Source of the DNA: a virus | Strand: one strand, 5' to 3' | Virus record (IMG/VR): IMGVR_UViG_3300032676_001573 | Location: 1-38,600 of that record | DNA: 38,600 bases | In this document: one piece after another, positions 8,164 through 24,173 of the stretch | How the letters are laid out: each line of letters starts with the position of its first letter | How positions within the stretch are numbered: position 1 is the first letter of the stretch | The notes under the pieces: generated by a model | What the model saw: only the letters and a program-made list of their open reading frames with translations | The model's database searches: none | What the model was told of the DNA's origin: nothing | Position numbers and translations under genes: made by a program

Positions 8164-8952
8164 TTACTCATTATTTCTTTTTTGTACTCTTAGTAAATTA
8201 CTCCACCACTTACTTTTCTTCGGATTTACTATCAAATCTTTATTATTTGATTTAAATCCATCATAATTAAAAGCATTTGACCACGTCATATTTTTATCAT
8301 TAAGTTCTAAATTACTTTTTGGTCTTCTATATGCAGGGTAATAAGTAGATACCTCAAATTGCATTGTTAATTTAAGTGAGTTGTCTGATGTCATGTTCTT
8401 TTCTCTCGAAAACTCAAGTGTTTTTGTATCAGGTAATATAATCATAGCATCTATATTCATATAATTATATTCAAATTGAATATATCTATAAAATGAAAAA
8501 GAATCTAAAATAGCTTGGCTACATTTAAAATAATCTATCTCATTTGCTAATAAAATTACTAAATCAAATTTCACACTCAAAGGAATAGCTTTAATTTTTG
8601 TTAAAACTTTTTTTATTTCCTCATTATCATCAATTACAGTTTTTAACCAAACATTTGGATTATTAAATCTATCAGATAAAATATCAAATCCAGTCATTGT
8701 TAAATGACCTCTTGGTATTTTATCAGTATTTAATTCAACATATCTATTATCAGATACAACATCATCAACAAATGAATCTAATAAAAATCTTTCATCACCA
8801 GTTAGAGAATAATAAACAGGTACTGATACTTCTATATTACCACTTGAAAATCTATTAACCCACATTAACTCGGATTCTAAAGTATCTAAAACACAAAGAC
8901 AAAGGTCTCTAAAATAAGAATCATCAAAATTCGAAACATTACCTATTGACAT
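8164..8952 (-). CDS. 15: Probable tail sheath stabiliser / tail completion protein, T4 gp15-like
   Basis: In T4, gp15 caps the contractile tail and holds the last sheath ring. Features that follow the gp15 pattern in order: GNIEVSVPVYYSLTGDE, IPRGHLTMTGFDILSDRFN, a strand-rich middle with VKFDLVILLANEIDYFKCSQ followed by ILDSFSFYRYIQFEY, then a polar loop and LTMQFEVSTYYPAYRRP near residues 205-222. Length is 262 residues against 272 in T4. The start codon overlaps the end of the homing endonuclease gene by 10 bp, so the intruding gene sits directly at its 5' end. The family call rests on remembered pattern similarity and needs a profile search. Confidence 0.5.
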   Translation of the reverse strand: MSIGNVSNFDDSYFRDLCLCVLDTLESELMWVNRFSSGNIEVSVPVYYSLTGDERFLLDSFVDDVVSDNRYVELNTDKIPRGHLTMTGFDILSDRFNNPNVWLKTVIDDNEEIKKVLTKIKAIPLSVKFDLVILLANEIDYFKCSQAILDSFSFYRYIQFEYNYMNIDAMIILPDTKTLEFSREKNMTSDNSLKLTMQFEVSTYYPAYRRPKSNLELNDKNMTWSNAFNYDGFKSNNKDLIVNPKKSKWWSNLLRVQKRNNE

Positions 8953-10235
8953 TTTTTATTTTTATTTTTAAATTCTGATTCCCATATAGAAATCACTTTA
9001 TATCCTAATTTTTCTAAATTTTCTTTTTTATTTATTGTATTATTATACAATTCTCCGAATGTCTTTTTACAAACTTGGTTATAATCATTTTCATTATATT
9101 TATTTAAATTACCATGCCAGTAATCACCATTAAATTCATAAATTATATTATTTTTATAATCAATCCCATCAACAATATATTTATCTACTTTTATTTGTCT
9201 ATTTTCTTTTGGAATAGAAAGTAAATCTAACCATTCATTTTCTGTAGTGTAAAAAGTTCTTGAACATTTTTTACACCCTGAATTTTTATGTAAATGATAT
9301 GACGCATTTGTTGTAAAATATCCATGTATTTTACAACCTAAAGTAATTTTATCATAAATACCATTATATACTAATTTATCATAAATAAAACTATCTCCAT
9401 ATTTTTTTATTGATAAATCAATAAAATCTTGTTTAGAGTGTAAATTTTTACATTTTTTACAACCATAACCATTAATATGATTAATTGCTCTTTGTTTAAA
9501 GTTTCCGTGTATTTTACAATTTATTTCAACTAAATCTTCATAATTTAATAATGTTTTTATATTATCATATGAATATTTATCATTGTGTATTTGTTTACTT
9601 TTTAAAAGAAAATTTTCTAATCCTTTTCTTAAATTATTATGATAGCACAATTTACACCCGCAGCCTTGTAAATGGCAGGTAGGTGTCATTTCAAAAATAC
9701 CATGTTCTTTACATATTATAGGAACTTTTATATTTGCTTTTACAAAATTAACTAAAGAATAATCATACATATTACTATGTAATAGATTTGCTTTCTCAAT
9801 AAAAACATCATTATTTAAAAAACTTTTACCTATACTATTACATTTAGGACACCCGCCTGTTATAGAATCTAAATGTTTTTCTGGAGTTTGTAAAAACTCT
9901 TCATTATGTTTTTTACAAGTAATAATTATTTTACTTTTCTTTTTAATATAAATTACTTTTGAATAATCATATTTATCTCCATGTTTAGATACAAATCTAT
10001 TTATTAATTCATTTATATCTAATTTACGATTAACACTATTTTTAATTAAAGAACATTTTGGGCATCCACATTTATAATGAGATGCTGCATTTTGTTCAAA
10101 ATCACCATGTTCTTTACAAGTAATAATTAATTTATTCTTATTACCTGTATAGATAGTTTTTGAATATTCATAACTATTATTATGAATAAACCTAACTTTT
10201 TCTATGTATTCTTCTTGTGTTAATTTTTTTGACAT
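8943..10235 (-). CDS. Homing endonuclease, Vsr/EDxHD type with five zinc-binding repeats
   Basis: This is a selfish DNA endonuclease. About residues 1-330 hold five tandem units, each with C-x2-H followed about 20 residues later by C-x2-C (for example CKEHGDFEQ with CGCPKC, and CKIHGNFKQ with GCKKC). These are DUF723-type zinc-binding repeats likely to read DNA. The C-terminal nuclease has YEFNGDYWHGN and, after a helical segment, YKVISIWESEFKNK, the Vsr-like fold of EDxHD homing endonucleases. All five zinc units look intact and the Glu-Asp-His residues are present, so it is probably active. It is inserted immediately upstream of the gp15-like gene (10-bp overlap). Confidence 0.85.
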   Translation of the reverse strand: MSKKLTQEEYIEKVRFIHNNSYEYSKTIYTGNKNKLIITCKEHGDFEQNAASHYKCGCPKCSLIKNSVNRKLDINELINRFVSKHGDKYDYSKVIYIKKKSKIIITCKKHNEEFLQTPEKHLDSITGGCPKCNSIGKSFLNNDVFIEKANLLHSNMYDYSLVNFVKANIKVPIICKEHGIFEMTPTCHLQGCGCKLCYHNNLRKGLENFLLKSKQIHNDKYSYDNIKTLLNYEDLVEINCKIHGNFKQRAINHINGYGCKKCKNLHSKQDFIDLSIKKYGDSFIYDKLVYNGIYDKITLGCKIHGYFTTNASYHLHKNSGCKKCSRTFYTTENEWLDLLSIPKENRQIKVDKYIVDGIDYKNNIIYEFNGDYWHGNLNKYNENDYNQVCKKTFGELYNNTINKKENLEKLGYKVISIWESEFKNKNKKCQ

Positions 10236-14636: not shown

Positions 14637-15641
14637 TTATATTTTATTAGTAAAAGTATAATTATTTATTTGCTTTCTATCCCCATTAATTATTCTGCGT
14701 ATAATCTTAATGTCTATATTAAGAATCTCTGATGCATCATAAACATTATTAAAAGTTTGAATAATATTATTATTTAAATCTAATTGAGATACTTTTTTTG
14801 ATATTTTTCTTCTATCCCATTTTCCTACTTTATATTCTTTTAATGTAGAGAAAAATATATACTTTCTTTCTAATCTTAAATTTTCAGAATCTTTATACAT
14901 TGAATCATATATAATTTTTAAATCTTTAAATGAATAATATAAAATAGAACATAAACCATTTATATCAGAATTATTAATTTTTATACTTAATTTAGTATCA
15001 CTTAATCCATATTCTAAAAATACTTTTTTTATTTTATTTATTATTAAAGTAGAACCTACTAAATCAAATCTTAATCTACCTTCTTTATTATTATTTTCTT
15101 TAGAAATAGAACCATCGCCATCAAATAAACCTCTTAAAAAATGCCAAAATAAATCTGAATTTATTTCAGGTAAATCACAAGTAAAAGATTTATTATTAGT
15201 AATTCCTAAATTATTTAAATGTTTAACTATTAATTTAGAACAAATATGTAATGTATATCGAGTATATGTTTTATTAGTTCTTTTATCAAATGTTTCTACT
15301 TTACATATTTTATGCTCTGATTCAATCTTTTCTTTAAATAATTCAACTAAATCTAAATCTTTTGATATAAAACTGAAACCATATCCTGTATTATCTATAC
15401 TACCATCAGAAAGTATTAGACCTATTAAATAGGCTTTTTCTTTTGTATCTATTTTTTCAAAAAAATTTTCATTTAATGCTCTTTTTCTATTTGATCTAAT
15501 CTCAATATTATTTTTTAATAAAATTTTCTTTACCTGAGTAGTTCTAGTTGGTGTTCCATATATTTTTGATATTTCTACCAAATTTTTACCTGATTTATAT
15601 AATTCTAAAACATGCTCTTCATTAAATTTTTGTAATTTCAT
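14637..15641 (-). CDS. LAGLIDADG homing endonuclease (free-standing)
   Basis: Residues about 5-45 form a helix-turn-helix (NLVEISKIYGTPTRTTQVKK). Two LAGLIDADG helices follow: YLIGLILSDG (71-80) and FLRGLFDGDG (168-177), both with the catalytic acidic residue. A C-terminal NUMOD1-like DNA-reading helix pair (VYDASEILNIDIKIIRRIIN) ends the protein. It is 334 residues with no intein splicing blocks, so it is a free-standing mobile endonuclease rather than part of an intein. A TTTTTTAATATATAAAATT box lies 12 nt before the ATG. Its 3' end almost abuts the membrane-protein gene. Confidence 0.88.
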   Translation of the reverse strand: MKLQKFNEEHVLELYKSGKNLVEISKIYGTPTRTTQVKKILLKNNIEIRSNRKRALNENFFEKIDTKEKAYLIGLILSDGSIDNTGYGFSFISKDLDLVELFKEKIESEHKICKVETFDKRTNKTYTRYTLHICSKLIVKHLNNLGITNNKSFTCDLPEINSDLFWHFLRGLFDGDGSISKENNNKEGRLRFDLVGSTLIINKIKKVFLEYGLSDTKLSIKINNSDINGLCSILYYSFKDLKIIYDSMYKDSENLRLERKYIFFSTLKEYKVGKWDRRKISKKVSQLDLNNNIIQTFNNVYDASEILNIDIKIIRRIINGDRKQINNYTFTNKI

Positions 15642-16338: not shown

Positions 16339-16956
16339 ATGTCAACTTGTAAAGAAAATAAAAAATTATATGATAAAGAATATAGAAAAAGAAATAAAGA
16401 AAAATTAAGAGAACAAAAAAAAGAATGGGTTAAAAATAATCCAGATAAAGTTAAAGAAAGTAGAGTAAGAAATAAAGAATCAAAAAAACTAAGTGATAAA
16501 AAATATTCTATTAGAAATAAAGAAAAGTTAAATGAATATAAAAAAGAATGGGCTAAAAATAATCCTGATAAAGTAAAAGAATCAAATTTTAAATATCATC
16601 AAAATAAAATGATAAATGATAAACTTTATAAATTAAAACATTTAACAAGTAATATTATTAGAGATTCTTTTAAAAGAAAGGGGATTTCAAAAAATTATAG
16701 AAGTGTTTATATATTAGGTTGTACTATAGACTTTTTTAAAAATTATTTAGAAAATAAATTTGAAAGTTGGATGAATTGGGACAATTATGGCAATCCTATT
16801 GATGGTTTAATAGAGCCAAATAAAACATGGGATATAGATCATATAATACCATTATCAAATGCTACAACAGAGGAAGAAATTTTTAAATTAAATCATTATA
16901 CTAATTTACAACCTTTATGTAGTTATCACAATAGATTTATTAAAAAAGATAATTAA
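16339..16956 (+). CDS. HNH homing endonuclease
   Basis: The C-terminal nuclease has WDIDHIIPLSNA, then LNHYTNLQPLCSYHNRFIKK: the DH, N and HN residues of the HNH beta-beta-alpha-metal site are intact. The N-terminal half is a Lys/Arg/Asn-rich helical region with an internal duplication (KKEWVKNNPDKVKES and KKEWAKNNPDKVKES, about 43 residues apart), probably a DNA-binding arm. Length is 205 residues. A CTTTTAATATATAAAA box lies about 20 nt upstream of the ATG. It sits between the HAD and ClpS genes, as an inserted mobile gene would. Confidence 0.85.
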   Translation: MSTCKENKKLYDKEYRKRNKEKLREQKKEWVKNNPDKVKESRVRNKESKKLSDKKYSIRNKEKLNEYKKEWAKNNPDKVKESNFKYHQNKMINDKLYKLKHLTSNIIRDSFKRKGISKNYRSVYILGCTIDFFKNYLENKFESWMNWDNYGNPIDGLIEPNKTWDIDHIIPLSNATTEEEIFKLNHYTNLQPLCSYHNRFIKKDN

Positions 16957-18716: not shown

Positions 18717-21700
18717 TTAATAATATTTTTTACCATGCCAATCTATACTTCTTTCATAAGTATATGATGTAGCATTTTTCCTTCTGCGATTAACATTTAT
18801 TAATGCAGAATAATCCGAAACTTCTTTAGCTTCACTTGAATTATTTATTATATTATTAATATAATTTAATACATCAGTTGGTAACTCTTTACTAAAATCT
18901 TGTATCATCTCTTTATAATCATAACGACTAAATATAGATGAAGCATTTACTAATGACATAGCACAATTATGAACAACAATACCATCAGCAGTATAACTAT
19001 TATCATCTTCTACTTCTAAATTATATGTTAATCCTTCATATTGATATTTTTCTGATTTTTCTATTAAAGATCCATATTCGTAATTGTTAAACTTTAATAA
19101 ACTTGAAGACTTTGGTCTATTTTCATATATAGTAACCCAATATTGGTCTTTTGTATCTTTATTATATCTTTTTCTTTTATATTTATTTATCAAAGCCCAA
19201 TATCCTAAAGACATAGCAATATCTCTCATACCTAGTGCTAATTTTTTACTTATACTACAACCAATTTTTTTATCTTTTCTATTATTTTTACCTTTTCTAA
19301 TCCAACCATCCCCTTTTAACCAATATTCTAATACATATTTTAGATCTTTTCCTAAAGTATAAGCATAATATGGTATAATTTTTTCTTTTTCACAATAACA
19401 AAAGTTTAACACTTCAGCATAAAATTTACTATTAAAAGATAAATTAGTTGATTTTTTCTTTTTATTATTAAACTCTTGTGTATTAATACCTAAATTTTCT
19501 AAATAATTTTTTATTTCATTAATTAATTCTATTTGACTTGAATTAAAAGCAATTGTAATTCTATAAAAATCATCTTTAATATATACGTTACCATCTGCTA
19601 AAAAAAGTCCTAAAAATTTAGCAAAATTAGAATCTAATATAATTTCTTTTTGTTTGATATTATCTACATAAGAATATTTATTTAATTCAAAAAAATCTTC
19701 CCATTTTAATATTACATTTTTATTATCTTCTAAATTTTCAATAATTGAAACACATCTTCTTTTTGCTTTAAAATTTTCTGGCAAAACCCATTCTCTATTT
19801 GTATAATTATTATAATTCCCTTTTTTACAAATTTTTCTACTATAATTAATATTAGAAGCATATATAGGATGATTATATGTTATATCTAATTCTAATTGAC
19901 CTTTGAATTTTAGTTTATACATATCCCCTTTGAAATTTTTAATACATTTATTAATAACTTTTTTATAATTACCTAAATGAGTTAAAACTAAATCCCCTAT
20001 TTCTATATCTTTAATATATTTATATCCTTTATTAGTCATTATTATAGAATCTTCTTTTAAACAATCATCATGACCAATATCCGCAGCATATCTAACATTA
20101 CCTGCTGATGTTATATGTCTAACAAATGTAGTTATTTCTTTGATATTATCTTCATTAGTTATATTAAAATTTCTTTTGTTCATATTTTCTTGATAATCTT
20201 TAACCAAAAGATTTTTATTATCTCCTAATTTTAACCCTACTTTTTCTTCACTTGAATCCATTCTATGTTTATATCTAAAAAATATACCAGAACCATAATT
20301 ATTACTACCATCAAATACATGCGGTAAATGAGCTAAAAACTCACTACCATAAGTATTCGTTTCTAATACTACTCTAAACTTTTCATAATCAAAATATTCA
20401 AAAGCTAACATATAAAATAAATCTGCTAATTGTTTAACAGAAATTAAATTAGACCTATATAATCCAATTTGTTCTAACCAAAAGAAATCACTAAAATCAT
20501 ATAAATTAGATTTTTGAGCTTCAATTAATTCTATAGGTTTTAACGCTATTCTAAATATATTTATAATAGTATAATCTTGACCTAAACCTTCCGATATATC
20601 AATTGACATTATACCTTTAGTATTTTTACGATTAGCATGATTAAATGTATCCTCATCAACCCATGTTAAGTCTCTATAACTAAATCTTAATTTATCATCA
20701 AACATAGGTATATCTCTATACTCAAAATGTTTTTTACCTTTAATTAAAGTATCAATAACACTTTCACTTAATATAGAACGAGTTGCGTTAATAAAACGTA
20801 AACCATATTCTTGGTTAAATGCATCTTCTCCACCTATATTTTTTATAGAATCTTCTTTCCATGTAGAAACATCACATGCTAATTGAATAGGTGTTAATAC
20901 ATTATTATTGTCATAAAATTGAAAAGATTTTGTTAATTCTTCAGGACATAGTTCATTATTATGAATTGCTATAGTTTCTTTTTCTATTTCGGCATCAAAC
21001 TTTTTTTCTACTTTAGTTAAATGTGAAAAGTTAGCTATAACTTGCTCATATAAAGATTCTTCTGTTAAACCAAATTTAAATAATTTAACAGGGTTTAATC
21101 TATAAAATGTCAAGAATCTTCCTGGTACTTGATACCAATATATTCTTAATGCTTTAAACTGATTTTTTTGCGGATCGCCTTCAGGGCGTTCCGCATCGGT
21201 TAATAATCTATAAAATAGATTCATTCCATTAGGTGTTGATGTAATAATTATTTTTGAGTTTTCTACAGCAGATACTACGGGATAAACTGCTTGGTAATAA
21301 GGTTCAATAATATTAGAAGGAATGTGTGCAAATTCATCTAAGTATAAAAAGTCTATCGTAAAACCGATAGCGGGAGTTCTACTTCTTGCAGCTGTTTTAA
21401 TACGACAACCATTTTCAAATATCATTGTTCTTTGGTTCCAGTTTTTAATACCTACTTTAAGGAAGAATGGAAGGTGAACATATATAGATTTAATTTTATC
21501 TACAATTTCAATTGTTGTACTGGCTATGTTAGCCACAATCATAATATTTTTATCGTTGTTAAATGTTACAAAGTGTAACATGGTAATTGCTGCATTAATT
21601 GTATTATGACTTAATATACCATTTGTATAAAATCTATGATTTGGATCATCAATAGTAAAATCAAACATACTAACTGATGAATTATATTTTACTATATTTA

Positions 21701-22040
21701 TAACTTTTTTATTACCATATTTTGTAAATAATAAATCTCCTTTTTTTAAATCTTTACAAAATACTTCTTCTAAATTGTTAGTAAATAAAATATGATTATC
21801 AGCACATTCTAAAAATAAATTATTTTCTAAAACAATTTTATATACTTTATAAGGTTGTGTTAGATGTATATCAGTAGCTTTAACAAACCCGTTATCAGAT
21901 TCTACTCTTATATCTAAATTCGATATAGTATTTAATATTTTTTTATTTATATCATTTTGATCTAATGATAAATTCCTATATTCATAATTTTCAATTAAAT
22001 TTATTAATTTATAAATTATTTTTATTATTATTTTTTTCAT
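18717..22040 (-). CDS. 17: Terminase large subunit, C-terminal part, with C-intein at its start and a second complete intein
   Basis: It encodes most of the DNA-packaging motor. Residues 1-146 are the C-half of a split intein ending SHN before Thr147. The extein continues TINAAITMLHF, completing the Walker A broken in the upstream fragment (GSRQIGK plus T). Walker B is FLYLDEFA (Asp235, Glu236), and the coupling motif is IIITSTPNG (264-272). The nuclease domain has GIMSIDISEGLGQDY (Asp481), VVLETNTYGSEF (Glu560) and ADIGHDD (658-659), matching the three catalytic carboxylates of T4 gp17. Residues 660-1025 are a complete intein inserted directly after that HDD. After both splicing events the motor would be about 716 residues (121 + 595), against 610 in T4. 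It must be joined in trans to the product of 23609-24139. Confidence 0.92.
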   Translation of the reverse strand: MKKIIIKIIYKLINLIENYEYRNLSLDQNDINKKILNTISNLDIRVESDNGFVKATDIHLTQPYKVYKIVLENNLFLECADNHILFTNNLEEVFCKDLKKGDLLFTKYGNKKVINIVKYNSSVSMFDFTIDDPNHRFYTNGILSHNTINAAITMLHFVTFNNDKNIMIVANIASTTIEIVDKIKSIYVHLPFFLKVGIKNWNQRTMIFENGCRIKTAARSRTPAIGFTIDFLYLDEFAHIPSNIIEPYYQAVYPVVSAVENSKIIITSTPNGMNLFYRLLTDAERPEGDPQKNQFKALRIYWYQVPGRFLTFYRLNPVKLFKFGLTEESLYEQVIANFSHLTKVEKKFDAEIEKETIAIHNNELCPEELTKSFQFYDNNNVLTPIQLACDVSTWKEDSIKNIGGEDAFNQEYGLRFINATRSILSESVIDTLIKGKKHFEYRDIPMFDDKLRFSYRDLTWVDEDTFNHANRKNTKGIMSIDISEGLGQDYTIINIFRIALKPIELIEAQKSNLYDFSDFFWLEQIGLYRSNLISVKQLADLFYMLAFEYFDYEKFRVVLETNTYGSEFLAHLPHVFDGSNNYGSGIFFRYKHRMDSSEEKVGLKLGDNKNLLVKDYQENMNKRNFNITNEDNIKEITTFVRHITSAGNVRYAADIGHDDCLKEDSIIMTNKGYKYIKDIEIGDLVLTHLGNYKKVINKCIKNFKGDMYKLKFKGQLELDITYNHPIYASNINYSRKICKKGNYNNYTNREWVLPENFKAKRRCVSIIENLEDNKNVILKWEDFFELNKYSYVDNIKQKEIILDSNFAKFLGLFLADGNVYIKDDFYRITIAFNSSQIELINEIKNYLENLGINTQEFNNKKKKSTNLSFNSKFYAEVLNFCYCEKEKIIPYYAYTLGKDLKYVLEYWLKGDGWIRKGKNNRKDKKIGCSISKKLALGMRDIAMSLGYWALINKYKRKRYNKDTKDQYWVTIYENRPKSSSLLKFNNYEYGSLIEKSEKYQYEGLTYNLEVEDDNSYTADGIVVHNCAMSLVNASSIFSRYDYKEMIQDFSKELPTDVLNYINNIINNSSEAKEVSDYSALINVNRRRKNATSYTYERSIDWHGKKYY
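18966..20063 (-). other. Complete intein with LAGLIDADG endonuclease, in the terminase nuclease motif
   Basis: These are 366 residues (660-1025 of the C-terminal terminase gene). The first residue is Cys after HDD. Block A is CLKEDSIIMTNKGYKYI, block B has LDITYNHPIY (Thr and His of TxxH), and block F/G is SYTADGIVVHN, followed by +1 Cys. The endonuclease domain lies in the middle with FLGLFLADGN (809-818) and VLEYWLKGDG (903-912). All splicing residues are present, so both splicing and homing look intact. The insertion point lies between the third nuclease aspartate pair and the following helix (CAMSLVNAS). Confidence 0.93.
21603..22040 (-). other. C-terminal half of split intein (146 aa) on the terminase C-gene
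   Basis: Residues 1-146. It opens with a hydrophobic basic helix (MKKIIIKIIYKLINLIENYE), then SDNGFVKATDI, block B-like LECADNHILF (His83), block F with FDFTIDDPNHRFYTNGILSHN and the terminal Asn146 before Thr147. Because block B is in this half, the break lies between blocks A and B, which is atypical. No endonuclease domain is present. Remembered relatives are the atypically split TerL inteins from metagenomes (AceL-TerL). Confidence 0.9.
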
Positions 22041-22103
22041 ATATAAATGAACTTTTTTAATATATATTATATTATCTAATATACCTTAAAAAACAATGAT
22101 AAA

Positions 22104-22550
22104 ATGAAAAATAATTTAAAAGTTTATAAAAACATAGATAAAAAATTTTTAATAAATTTTATAGAAAATAATATTACAGAAAATAATAAAGAAATAATAG
22201 ATATGATAAAAAAATCTATATTAGTAGATAAAGAAGTTTTATTAAGAACAATTTTTGATAAACTAAATATAGATTCAATAATATTATCTGTTAATAAAAT
22301 GGATAATAATAAAGGTTTTGATATTTTATTTATGACCATAACTGATAGTATAGAGTTTTCAACTACTTCTGTTTTTGCTAGCTCTTTTTTAAATTATAGA
22401 AATGAATTGAATAGAAAGAAAATAGAAATAGAAAAAAATTATCCTAAAAAAGAGTATTTAATGATTAATAATCAAATGGATATCTATCTTAATGAAATAG
22501 ATTCTGCTTTAAAATCTTTATCTATCGAAAATTTATTAAATAGCTATTAA
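22104..22550 (+). CDS. Unknown 148-aa protein inserted, inverted, within the fractured terminase locus
   Basis: Not recognised. It is Lys/Asn/Ile-rich and helical, with a conserved-looking middle (DSIILSVNKMDNNKGFDIL, then FMTITDSIEF). It begins MKNNLKVYKNIDKKFLINF, a weak match to the shared N-terminal signature. It is the only plus-strand gene between the two terminase halves and ends at a bidirectional terminator shared with the homing endonuclease. It may be cargo brought in with the endonuclease or an older resident; the sequence does not say which. Confidence 0.6.
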   Translation: MKNNLKVYKNIDKKFLINFIENNITENNKEIIDMIKKSILVDKEVLLRTIFDKLNIDSIILSVNKMDNNKGFDILFMTITDSIEFSTTSVFASSFLNYRNELNRKKIEIEKNYPKKEYLMINNQMDIYLNEIDSALKSLSIENLLNSY

Positions 22551-22551
22551 T

Positions 22552-22580
22552 AAAAAACCACGATTAAATCGTGGTTTTTT
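22552..22580. terminator. Bidirectional intrinsic terminator
   Basis: The stem ACCACGAT/ATCGTGGT with a TAA loop has flanking A6 and T6. It serves the convergent 148-aa gene and the homing endonuclease, whose stop codon lies in the loop and stem. Confidence 0.87.
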
Positions 22581-23580
22581 CAATTCCTAAAAAATTTAAA
22601 CATTTATTTAATGTTTCTTCTTTATTTTTCTTATACTCACTATCCCATATAGTTAAAACTTCAAAACCTTCTTTAATAGCATCTTCTGTTTTTCTCCTGT
22701 CTTTATCCCATATTAGTTCAGCTGTTAAACCTCTTTTTATATTAAAATTATGTGATATATCATTAGCTTTATATATTTTCGGATTAGCGTGATATTGATC
22801 CCCATTATATTCTATTATTTTTTTATTTTTTAAATCAACAAAGTCATAAATCCATATTCCTGATGTTGAACGATTTATCCTAAATTCCCCTTTACTATTA
22901 AATTTATTTGTAGCATAATATAAATTGCATATTTCACTTTCATTATAATAAGTAATTATAATGTTAAATAATTTTTGACTTATTAAAGAGTAACCTCCTT
23001 TCAGATTACCATTTTCTAAAAGACTTTTTTGCCATTTATTTTGTCTATTGGTAAATAATTTTTTACCTTCGTCTTCTCCATATTTCTCAATACATATTTT
23101 TTCACTAAAGGTCCTTTGTCTTTTAGACAACATTTTTTCAGCTACTTCTTCATTATAGCCTTTATCTAAGTAATATCTTATAGAGGTTGTTAATACTCTA
23201 TCTTTAAGAGCTTCTTGAACAAAGAATTTTCTTTGTTCATCAGTTTTATCATCTTTATACTTTATAAAATCTTTTGAAAAGGGTGATCTTGAGCGTCTTT
23301 CTTCTTCAGTAGTTTTTGATACATGATTTGGATTATTTTCTCCAGAAAATTTTTCAGAAAACATTTTTTTATATTTCTCCTCTTTCATATGTTTTCCCAT
23401 TTTTTCGGTATCTTTTTTAGCCATTAAAGGAGCATTAGGAAACTTTTTTAAGTAATCTTCTGAAGTCATACCATGAGATTTTAAATGACCTCCATATAAC
23501 CTTTTTGATTGCTTACCACATTCTCTACAAGTTACAAATTCATATGAATCATTTATAACTATCTCATTTTTTAAAATCAT
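22564..23580 (-). CDS. Homing endonuclease, Vsr/EDxHD type, between split terminase halves
   Basis: The N-terminal zinc finger is of MucR/Ros type (Cys18, Cys21, His32, His36, in TCRECGKQSKRLYGGHLKSH). A linker follows with GENNPNHVSKTTEEERRSRS (NUMOD-like), then a helical region with repeated EKYGED-type turns. The C-terminal nuclease has WIYDFVD, IIEYNGDQYHANP (Glu257, Asp261, His264) and, about 50 residues on, GFEVLTIWDSEYKKN. This is the Vsr-like fold used by the free-standing endonucleases described in fractured genes with split inteins. It starts 29 nt after the N-terminal terminase fragment ends and has its own TTTTTAATATATAAAT box. It most likely homes into the intact-intein or intein-less allele. 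Confidence 0.88.
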   Translation of the reverse strand: MILKNEIVINDSYEFVTCRECGKQSKRLYGGHLKSHGMTSEDYLKKFPNAPLMAKKDTEKMGKHMKEEKYKKMFSEKFSGENNPNHVSKTTEEERRSRSPFSKDFIKYKDDKTDEQRKFFVQEALKDRVLTTSIRYYLDKGYNEEVAEKMLSKRQRTFSEKICIEKYGEDEGKKLFTNRQNKWQKSLLENGNLKGGYSLISQKLFNIIITYYNESEICNLYYATNKFNSKGEFRINRSTSGIWIYDFVDLKNKKIIEYNGDQYHANPKIYKANDISHNFNIKRGLTAELIWDKDRRKTEDAIKEGFEVLTIWDSEYKKNKEETLNKCLNFLGIEKTTI

Positions 23581-23600
23581 AATTTTTATTCATTTTATGA

Positions 23601-23614
23601 TTTATATATTAAAA
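23601..23614 (-). promoter_or_regulatory. Late-type AT box of the homing endonuclease
   Basis: On the minus strand it reads TTTTTAATATATAAATC; TATAAATC is 7/8 to the T4 late -10 octamer. It lies 20-35 nt before the ATG and overlaps the stop of the terminase N-fragment. Confidence 0.5.
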
Positions 23615-24139
23615 AGTTTGGCTCCCCTCAAATTGGAATAATTTTTTATAAAGAAATAATTTTATTTTTTCTAAAAAAGTCAAAGGTCTAATCTTTTTTA
23701 ATTCTTCATAATAAATCATTCCTATGATTTTTTTGATGCCATTTTCAAATAAAACTTCTGTAGTAAAGGAAAAACATTTACCTATCTGACGACTACCACA
23801 TAGAATAGATTTTCTATTTTGATATAATTCTAATATATCTATTTGATAATCTCTTAGTGTTAGATTTTTAATACTACCATCTTCAACTTTAATTTTACAA
23901 TATTTTTGTGCAAAGTATTTTATATCTGTTTTACATTTAATATATTCTGCGATTTCTTCAGGAGTCATTGCGAAGGTTATACCTGCTCTCCTATTTCCTA
24001 TTTCATTTTTGAACCAAGGATTTTGATAACGTTTTAATACAATACCATCATTTAATTTCTGTGTTAATTCTTCAACTAGTTCTGAGTTAAAGACAAATTT
24101 CCTTAATTCTTCTTCGTCTATCTTTGTGCTTTTAGCCAT
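23609..24139 (-). CDS. 17: Terminase large subunit N-terminal fragment fused to N-intein
   Basis: It is 176 residues. Residues 1-121 are the N-terminal packaging ATPase: FAQKYCKI, then LTLRDYQIDILELYQN (the adenine-binding region of TerL) and ILCGSRQIGK, a Walker A that stops at its lysine. Residues 122-176 are an N-intein starting CFSFTTEVLFENGIKKI and ending in a helical, Lys/Phe/Leu-rich tail. The missing Walker A Thr is supplied by the gene at 18717-22040. Without splicing this fragment has half a P-loop and cannot hydrolyse ATP. It is divergent from the small terminase candidate. Confidence 0.93.
   Translation of the reverse strand: MAKSTKIDEEELRKFVFNSELVEELTQKLNDGIVLKRYQNPWFKNEIGNRRAGITFAMTPEEIAEYIKCKTDIKYFAQKYCKIKVEDGSIKNLTLRDYQIDILELYQNRKSILCGSRQIGKCFSFTTEVLFENGIKKIIGMIYYEELKKIRPLTFLEKIKLFLYKKLFQFEGSQTF
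23612..23776 (-). other. N-terminal half of split intein (55 aa)
   Basis: It has Cys1 (TGT at 23774-23776), block A CFSFTTEVLFENG, then a helical tail (PLTFLEKIKLFLYKKLFQF). Only block A is present, so the break comes before block B. The amphipathic tail mirrors the hydrophobic, basic helix at the start of the C-half, so the two could pair. Confidence 0.9.
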
Positions 24140-24165
24140 AAAAGAAAAATTATTTTTTTAATATA

Positions 24166-24173
24166 TATAAATA
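24166..24173 (+). promoter_or_regulatory. T4-type late promoter octamer TATAAATA
   Basis: An exact match to the T4 late -10 consensus, within TTTAATATATATAAATAAAT, 20 nt before the small-terminase ATG. The same AT block read on the minus strand could serve the terminase N-fragment. Confidence 0.6.

What the first reader, a model, noticed from the sequence alone, without database searches (positions are those of the whole stretch)
22104..23580. Vsr-like homing endonuclease and an inverted gene occupy the gap between intein halves
Seen: the endonuclease (Glu257, Asp261, His264; MucR-type finger at the N-terminus) starts 29 nt after the N-half stop and has its own AT box. A second, oppositely oriented 148-aa gene separates it from the C-half. 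This fits the fractured-gene model in which a free-standing endonuclease invades an intein gene and its cleavage spreads the whole fracture. The extra inverted gene with a shared bidirectional terminator is not part of the simple model and may be cargo.
Basis: partly seen in the sequence, partly recalled or inferred. Interest (0 to 1): 0.7.

Follow-up and report, generated by a model that had tools for sequence, protein, structure and literature searches.

The report
Split-intein terminase gene with endonuclease and cargo
A phage's DNA-packaging gene is broken in two by a gap that holds a homing endonuclease and, here, one extra back-to-front gene; the two half-proteins carry a split intein that should rejoin them, and comparison with dozens of relatives suggests the gap is a landing place where mobile and passenger genes collect.

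Summary
On the minus strand, a T4-type terminase large-subunit gene (TerL) is split at its Walker A motif into an N-half ending in a 55-aa intein-N and a C-half starting with a 146-aa intein-C. Between them lie a 338-aa Vsr/I-Bth0305I-like endonuclease (ENDO) and, reversed, a 148-aa gene sharing its terminator. This is a member of the published 'fractured gene' kind, with a variation.

Two contigs with 98-99% identical TerL exteins lack the insert cleanly. ENDO's N-terminal (MucR-finger) half occurs in all TerL copies and in none of the copies in DnaB, SbcC/gp46 or ClpB genes, while the catalytic half is shared. In one pair a 94-98% identical tract covers intein-N and ENDO, with 55-75% flanks. 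These point to target-specific homing.

Extra genes occur only between ENDO and intein-C (about 10 of 44 alleles), often with a second homing endonuclease abutting the C-half. The 148-aa gene has no relative anywhere searched; its function is open.

In two related phages, including the published 735-kb genome, the halves lie about 12.3 kb apart. Ackermannviridae carry a contiguous mini-intein at the same site. No activity was tested.

The parts
23777..24139 (-). TerL N-extein, residues 1-121, ending in the Walker A motif GSRQIGK
   Evidence: phrog_5989 terminase 7.7e-18
23612..23776 (-). Intein-N, 55 aa (Cys1; core of about 30 aa plus a C-terminal amphipathic tail), then the N-half stop at 23609-23611
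23599..23615 (-). AT-rich promoter-like motif TTTTTAATATATAAATC just upstream of ENDO
   Evidence: 33 matches in the window against 11.4 expected; function inferred
23182..23580 (-). ENDO N-terminal module, residues 1-133: MucR/Ros-type finger and linker; the TerL-specific half
22564..23181 (-). ENDO C-terminal module, residues 134-338 and stop: Vsr/I-Bth0305I-like nuclease with E257, D261, H264
22552..22580 (.). Bidirectional intrinsic terminator shared by ENDO and the 148-aa gene; it contains the ENDO stop codon
22104..22550 (+). 148-aa ORFan cargo gene, inverted, with its own AT-rich upstream motif at 22054-22070
21603..22040 (-). Intein-C, 146 aa: N-terminal amphipathic helix, block B CADNH, ends ILSHN
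20064..21602 (-). TerL C-extein part 1, +1 Thr; Terminase_6N
18966..20063 (-). Second, contiguous LAGLIDADG intein in the TerL nuclease domain (GHDD|C...HN|C)
   Evidence: absent from L028 and L033
18717..18965 (-). TerL C-extein part 2 and stop

Best explanation
This is a fractured terminase gene kept by homing. A mini-intein at the TerL Walker A site was invaded in its N-proximal linker by a free-standing Vsr-like endonuclease gene, leaving two ORFs whose products rejoin by protein trans-splicing (inferred). The endonuclease recognises intein-less TerL DNA through its N-terminal module and cuts near the Walker A codons (inferred). Repair from the fractured allele copies intein-N and ENDO, often with the rest, into the new phage (homing shown only by its traces). 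Once the gap exists it tolerates further insertions on the ENDO/intein-C side. In this phage that insertion is one inverted ORFan with its own promoter-like motif and a terminator shared with ENDO; it is most likely a passenger gene carried along, not part of the splicing or cutting machinery. Its inversion breaks the usual ENDO-to-C-half translational overlap, so the C-half must be expressed from its own start signals.
For: Empty versus fractured alleles at 98-99% TerL aa identity, with clean junctions. All 41 distinct lineages have Cys1, 38 end in HN and 40 have Thr+1. At least 12 fractured/empty changes on the extein tree. The ENDO N-terminal module is in 45 of 45 TerL copies and 0 of 12 copies in other genes, while the catalytic module is in all (host genes called in 78, 103, 104). 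L162/L158 share 94-98% over intein-N plus ENDO against 55-75% outside. ENDO and intein-C distances stay correlated after removing the extein distance, partial r 0.36, p 0.0005. Cargo lies only between ENDO and intein-C. Ackermannviridae have a contiguous intein at the same site.
Against: No cleavage or splicing was measured. SNP density around the window's insertion shows no clear co-conversion tract (N side 1 in 100 nt; C side 6 in the first 100 nt, then 0). The 148-aa gene occurs only in this allele, so co-transfer by homing is not shown for it. The Vsr/I-Bth0305I match is weak by sequence and by fold E-value.
Confidence: 0.82

Rival explanations
1. The 148-aa gene is a functional partner of the element (regulator of ENDO, target-site immunity factor or helper of fragment assembly), kept in place by selection.
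For: It sits inside the insert, is absent from the empty alleles and shares ENDO's terminator.
Against: About 34 of 44 fractured alleles have no such gene, and most cargo-bearing relatives have a different gene there. No homologue was found.
Confidence: 0.15
2. The fracture is a frozen, vertically inherited gene fission; ENDO is a bystander no longer active.
For: L041 and L040 lack ENDO but stay fractured. The 735-kb phage has no ENDO between its halves. ENDO is disrupted in L008.
Against: Patchy distribution with at least 12 changes, near-identical empty and fractured pairs (window/L028; L041/L089), a conversion tract, and intact conserved active-site residues in the window.
Confidence: 0.1
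3. ENDO targets an unrelated sequence and simply uses the TerL gap as a safe place.
For: Vsr-like nucleases recognise varied targets; a related ENDO stands free next to an intact TerL in Caulobacter phage Cr30.
Against: The N-terminal module tracks the host gene in four gene classes, and Cr30's ENDO beside TerL has the TerL-type module (blastp 9.5e-6 to the window).
Confidence: 0.08

Closest known systems
Fractured genes (Dassa et al. 2009, doi 10.1093/nar/gkp095; known to me from memory and from citations in PMC7090010, PMC10448857 and PMC3653736; the text is not held)
   Same: Gene split into two ORFs with intein halves and a free-standing Vsr-like endonuclease gene in the break
   Different: Here the split is N-proximal (IntN 55, IntC 146 aa) in TerL, and an unrelated inverted gene with a shared terminator lies in the break; relatives carry other cargo, up to 12.3 kb between the halves
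Aeromonas phage Aes123 PolB split intein with 'putative VSR endonuclease' (JN377899)
   Same: Same order IntN half, Vsr endonuclease, IntC half; homologous catalytic region
   Different: PolB host gene, different N-terminal module, no extra gene
AceL-TerL, GOS-TerL and Cat-TerL atypical split inteins (PMC11766414)
   Same: Short IntN and long IntC in TerL; IntC is weakly similar to CatC (PDB 6dsl, E 6e-4)
   Different: +1 residue is Thr, not Cys; IntN 55 against 25-37 aa, IntC 146 against 104-115 aa; extra amphipathic stretches on both sides of the break
I-Bth0305I, EDxHD homing endonucleases (PMC3943268)
   Same: Vsr-like catalytic fold; separate DNA-binding region
   Different: Not intron-encoded; MucR-type finger module; similarity weak
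HEG-islands (PMC10448857)
   Same: Homing endonuclease genes bracketing other genes, seen in L004, L118 and L189
   Different: Here the bracket lies inside a trans-spliced gene, and in the window only one endonuclease is present
Contiguous TerL mini-intein of Ackermannviridae (e.g. Klebsiella phage May, NC_047900)
   Same: Same Walker A insertion site, homologous intein domain
   Different: Unfractured, about 159 aa, no endonuclease gene inside

Membership tests
Fractured gene with split intein | Host gene in two ORFs, each with an intein half at the same extein junction | tested here: met
Fractured gene with split intein | Endonuclease gene free-standing inside the break | tested here: met
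Fractured gene with split intein | Intein-less homologues with a continuous gene | tested here: met
   L028 and L033 at 98-99% TerL identity
Fractured gene with split intein | Halves splice in trans | not testable with these tools
   Catalytic residues conserved; in L040 the halves lie on opposite strands
Fractured gene with split intein | Endonuclease cleaves the intein-less allele | not testable with these tools
   Indirect only:
Vsr-like / EDxHD homing endonuclease | Conserved acidic/His active site in a Vsr-like fold | tested here: inconclusive
   E257 and H264 invariant, D261 and D294 near-invariant; fold prob 0.92-0.97 but E above 0.1; mapping onto EDxHD positions not done
AceL/GOS-type atypical TerL split inteins | Short IntN split between blocks A and B, in TerL | tested here: met
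   block B CADNH lies in IntC
AceL/GOS-type atypical TerL split inteins | Cys+1 nucleophile and fragment sizes 25-37 / 104-115 aa | tested here: not met
   Thr+1 in 40 of 41; 55 and 146 aa (PMC11766414)
HEG-island | Genes bracketed by two homing endonucleases that move together | tested here: not met
   The window gap has one endonuclease; bracketing seen only in relatives

The most novel reading that the evidence does not exclude
A split intein turns an essential gene into a protected cargo dock: once trans-splicing makes the halves independent, the ENDO/intein-C junction collects a second homing endonuclease and passenger genes and can end as a permanent fission with the halves more than 12 kb apart, as in the 735-kb phage. 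Matching amphipathic helices on both sides of the break would serve as docking modules that make this possible.
Probability: 0.45. Interest if true: 0.78.

Novelty: new variant of a known kind. Interest (0 to 1): 0.62.

Why it matters
It supplies empty, contiguous, fractured, cargo-loaded and widely separated versions of one essential gene, so the steps from intein to gene fission can be tested. It also shows an endonuclease family whose N-terminal half appears to be exchanged to match the target gene, useful for understanding how homing specificity evolves, and offers many new atypical split inteins with possible built-in docking helices.

Tried and rejected
H148 function: Pfam and PHROGs gave nothing significant, AF2 without alignment had pLDDT 57 so no fold search was made, and phmmer, tblastn and record searches found no homologue. 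A capsid-targeting-like N-terminus was tried as a common cargo feature; H148 does not match it, so it was dropped. Chance ORF: rejected. Recent co-conversion in the window itself: inconclusive. An apparent ENDO transfer flagged by low distance (L037/L158) was first missing from a strict BLAST filter and then resolved as a bounded tract. Locus L021 was at first mis-scored as empty because it is reversed; the tree was rebuilt without it. The one genome-contig scan gave three distant hits and no host for this phage. Dassa 2009 could not be read.

Full report
What is there. The window is a 38.6-kb virus record. On the minus strand a T4-type terminase large subunit is encoded in two pieces. The N-half (23609-24139) runs to the Walker A lysine (GSRQIGK) and continues into a 55-aa intein-N starting with Cys. 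The C-half (18717-22040) starts with a 146-aa intein-C ending ILSHN, followed by Thr+1 and the rest of the terminase, which is itself interrupted by a contiguous LAGLIDADG intein. Between the halves lie the 338-aa endonuclease and the reversed 148-aa gene. All reported elements were confirmed; the N-half/ENDO spacing is 28 nt. The ENDO stop codon lies inside a perfect bidirectional terminator at 22552-22580. The 148-aa ORF is a genuine coding frame.

The endonuclease. Pfam finds a Ros/MucR finger at residues 14-68 and DUF559 at 292-331. A profile of 21 homologues has I-Bth0305I as its best, though weak, solved-structure match. The AF2 model matches Vsr and I-Bth0305I by fold with probability above 0.9 but E-values of 0.11-0.16, so 'Vsr-like' is likely rather than proven. 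E257, G260 and H264 are invariant; D261 and D294 are nearly so.

Empty, fractured and contiguous alleles. IMG/VR contigs L028 and L033 are 97.4% identical on the N side and 96.2% on the C side at the DNA level, with 98-99% identical TerL exteins, and lack the insert with a clean junction. On a tree of 73 extein sequences the fractured/empty state changes at least 12 times; the five shuffles printed gave 22-26. No contiguous version was seen among close relatives, but Ackermannviridae TerL (Klebsiella phage May, 736 aa) has an intein of about 159 aa (residues 110-268) at the same Walker A site, homologous to intein-C (37% over intein plus extein).

Evidence of mobility and target choice. The same catalytic module is found in fractured genes for TerL, DnaB-like helicase, SbcC/gp46-like protein and ClpB-like ATPase, each broken at a Walker A GK|S/T (identities). 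The N-terminal module of the TerL copies is found in all TerL copies (44 used to build the model, plus L164, which was not used, at 2.3e-51) and in none of 12 copies in other genes (E above 1). N-terminal modules cluster by host gene: TerL, DnaB, SbcC, ClpB. Caulobacter phage Cr30 has a free-standing ENDO with a TerL-type module next to an intact, intein-less TerL. L162 and L158 share 94-98% DNA identity over most of intein-N and ENDO, falling to 55-75% outside. In L163 versus L116, the ENDO N-terminal module (87-96%) and the first 500 nt of C-extein (88-96%) are alike while the nuclease half is 34-53%. ENDO and intein-C distances remain correlated after removing the extein distance (partial r 0.36, permutation p 0.0005), although matrices of related sequences are not independent. 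These are traces of homing and domain exchange, not a demonstration of cleavage.

The gap as a cargo site. Across 45 fractured alleles (two of them, L123 and L125, the same allele) the spacing from N-half to ENDO never exceeds 151 nt. ENDO to intein-C is at most 78 nt in 34, often overlapping, and 441-3429 nt in 11. The cargo differs: a 197/198-aa gene in L003, L008 and L123; 132 aa in L038; 309 aa in L113; two paralogues in L154; inverted 256- and 335-aa genes in L004; inverted 106 aa in L020. Second homing endonucleases of phrog_3339 type occur in L002, L004, L009, L118 and L189, with their stop overlapping the C-half start by 4-11 nt; one is inverted in L018 and one is decayed in L008 (family call made on L002 and L004, the others by similarity). 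The bias, 10 against 0 by lineage, is suggestive but not corrected for shared ancestry. The 148-aa gene fits this pattern: it is found only in the window's allele and a near-identical contig, and not in 24 other relatives' records, the phage collection or the other loci. Its function is unknown; passenger is the most likely role.

Extreme outcomes. In L040 the N-half lies on the opposite strand about 3.2 kb from the C-half, without ENDO. In L138/L189 the halves are 12,313 nt apart with ENDO beside the N-half, and in the 735-kb phage LR756501 they are 12,371 nt apart with many of the same genes between and no ENDO there. A 735-kb genome was reported as complete, curated and circular in PMC7162821; that LR756501 is that genome is inferred from its length. 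Both carry intein halves with Cys1 and Asn at the end, though the penultimate His is Leu, so splicing there needs testing.

A further feature. All TerL lineages examined carry an IntN tail of the type RxLTFLEKIKxxLY and an IntC head of the type IIYFLIQLIEKYEYRN, with variation; the head is strongly amphipathic (mean hydrophobic-moment z 2.05, tail 1.25). These parts are additional to the fragment sizes reported for AceL- and GOS-TerL (PMC11766414). I infer, without a structure, that they help the fragments find each other.

Verdict. An ordinary member of a published kind in outline, but a clear variant in content, and its relatives make several steps of fractured-gene evolution testable.

Noticed in passing
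window 8943-10235, 14637-15641, 16339-16956, 18966-20063, 22564-23580: At least five endonuclease-type insertions separate this phage from L028/L033, which are otherwise closely similar over much of the shared region; L028 keeps a 43-aa piece of the 430-aa gene.
   Followed up: partly
LR756501.1 609226-611493 and 623865-624410 (L197): The 735-kb phage record has its terminase in two ORFs 12.4 kb apart with split-intein ends, and no endonuclease gene beside them.
   Followed up: partly
L190 6225-8435 (+) and 11612-12112 (-): TerL halves on opposite strands after an apparent inversion; the neighbouring genes are rearranged too.
   Followed up: partly
L153 7761-8873: ENDO is inverted relative to the fractured TerL.
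   Followed up: no
L104 8923-9735: A 270-aa terminase N-domain-like paralogue with a degenerate Walker A follows the fractured TerL.
   Followed up: no
window 38212 onward, 27499, 28193, 13420; L038, L138, L154 gap genes: Many small genes start with MKxxKxFExF-like sequences resembling, from memory, the T4 capsid-targeting sequence (e.g. MKFKEFIFEA).
   Followed up: partly
window 22033-24173 and elsewhere: The motif TTTTTAATATATAAAT is enriched (33 against 11.4 expected); it may be a T4-late-like promoter.
   Followed up: partly
L041 9909-9986: A fracture with no endonuclease (76-nt gap), 97% identical in extein to the empty L089.
   Followed up: partly
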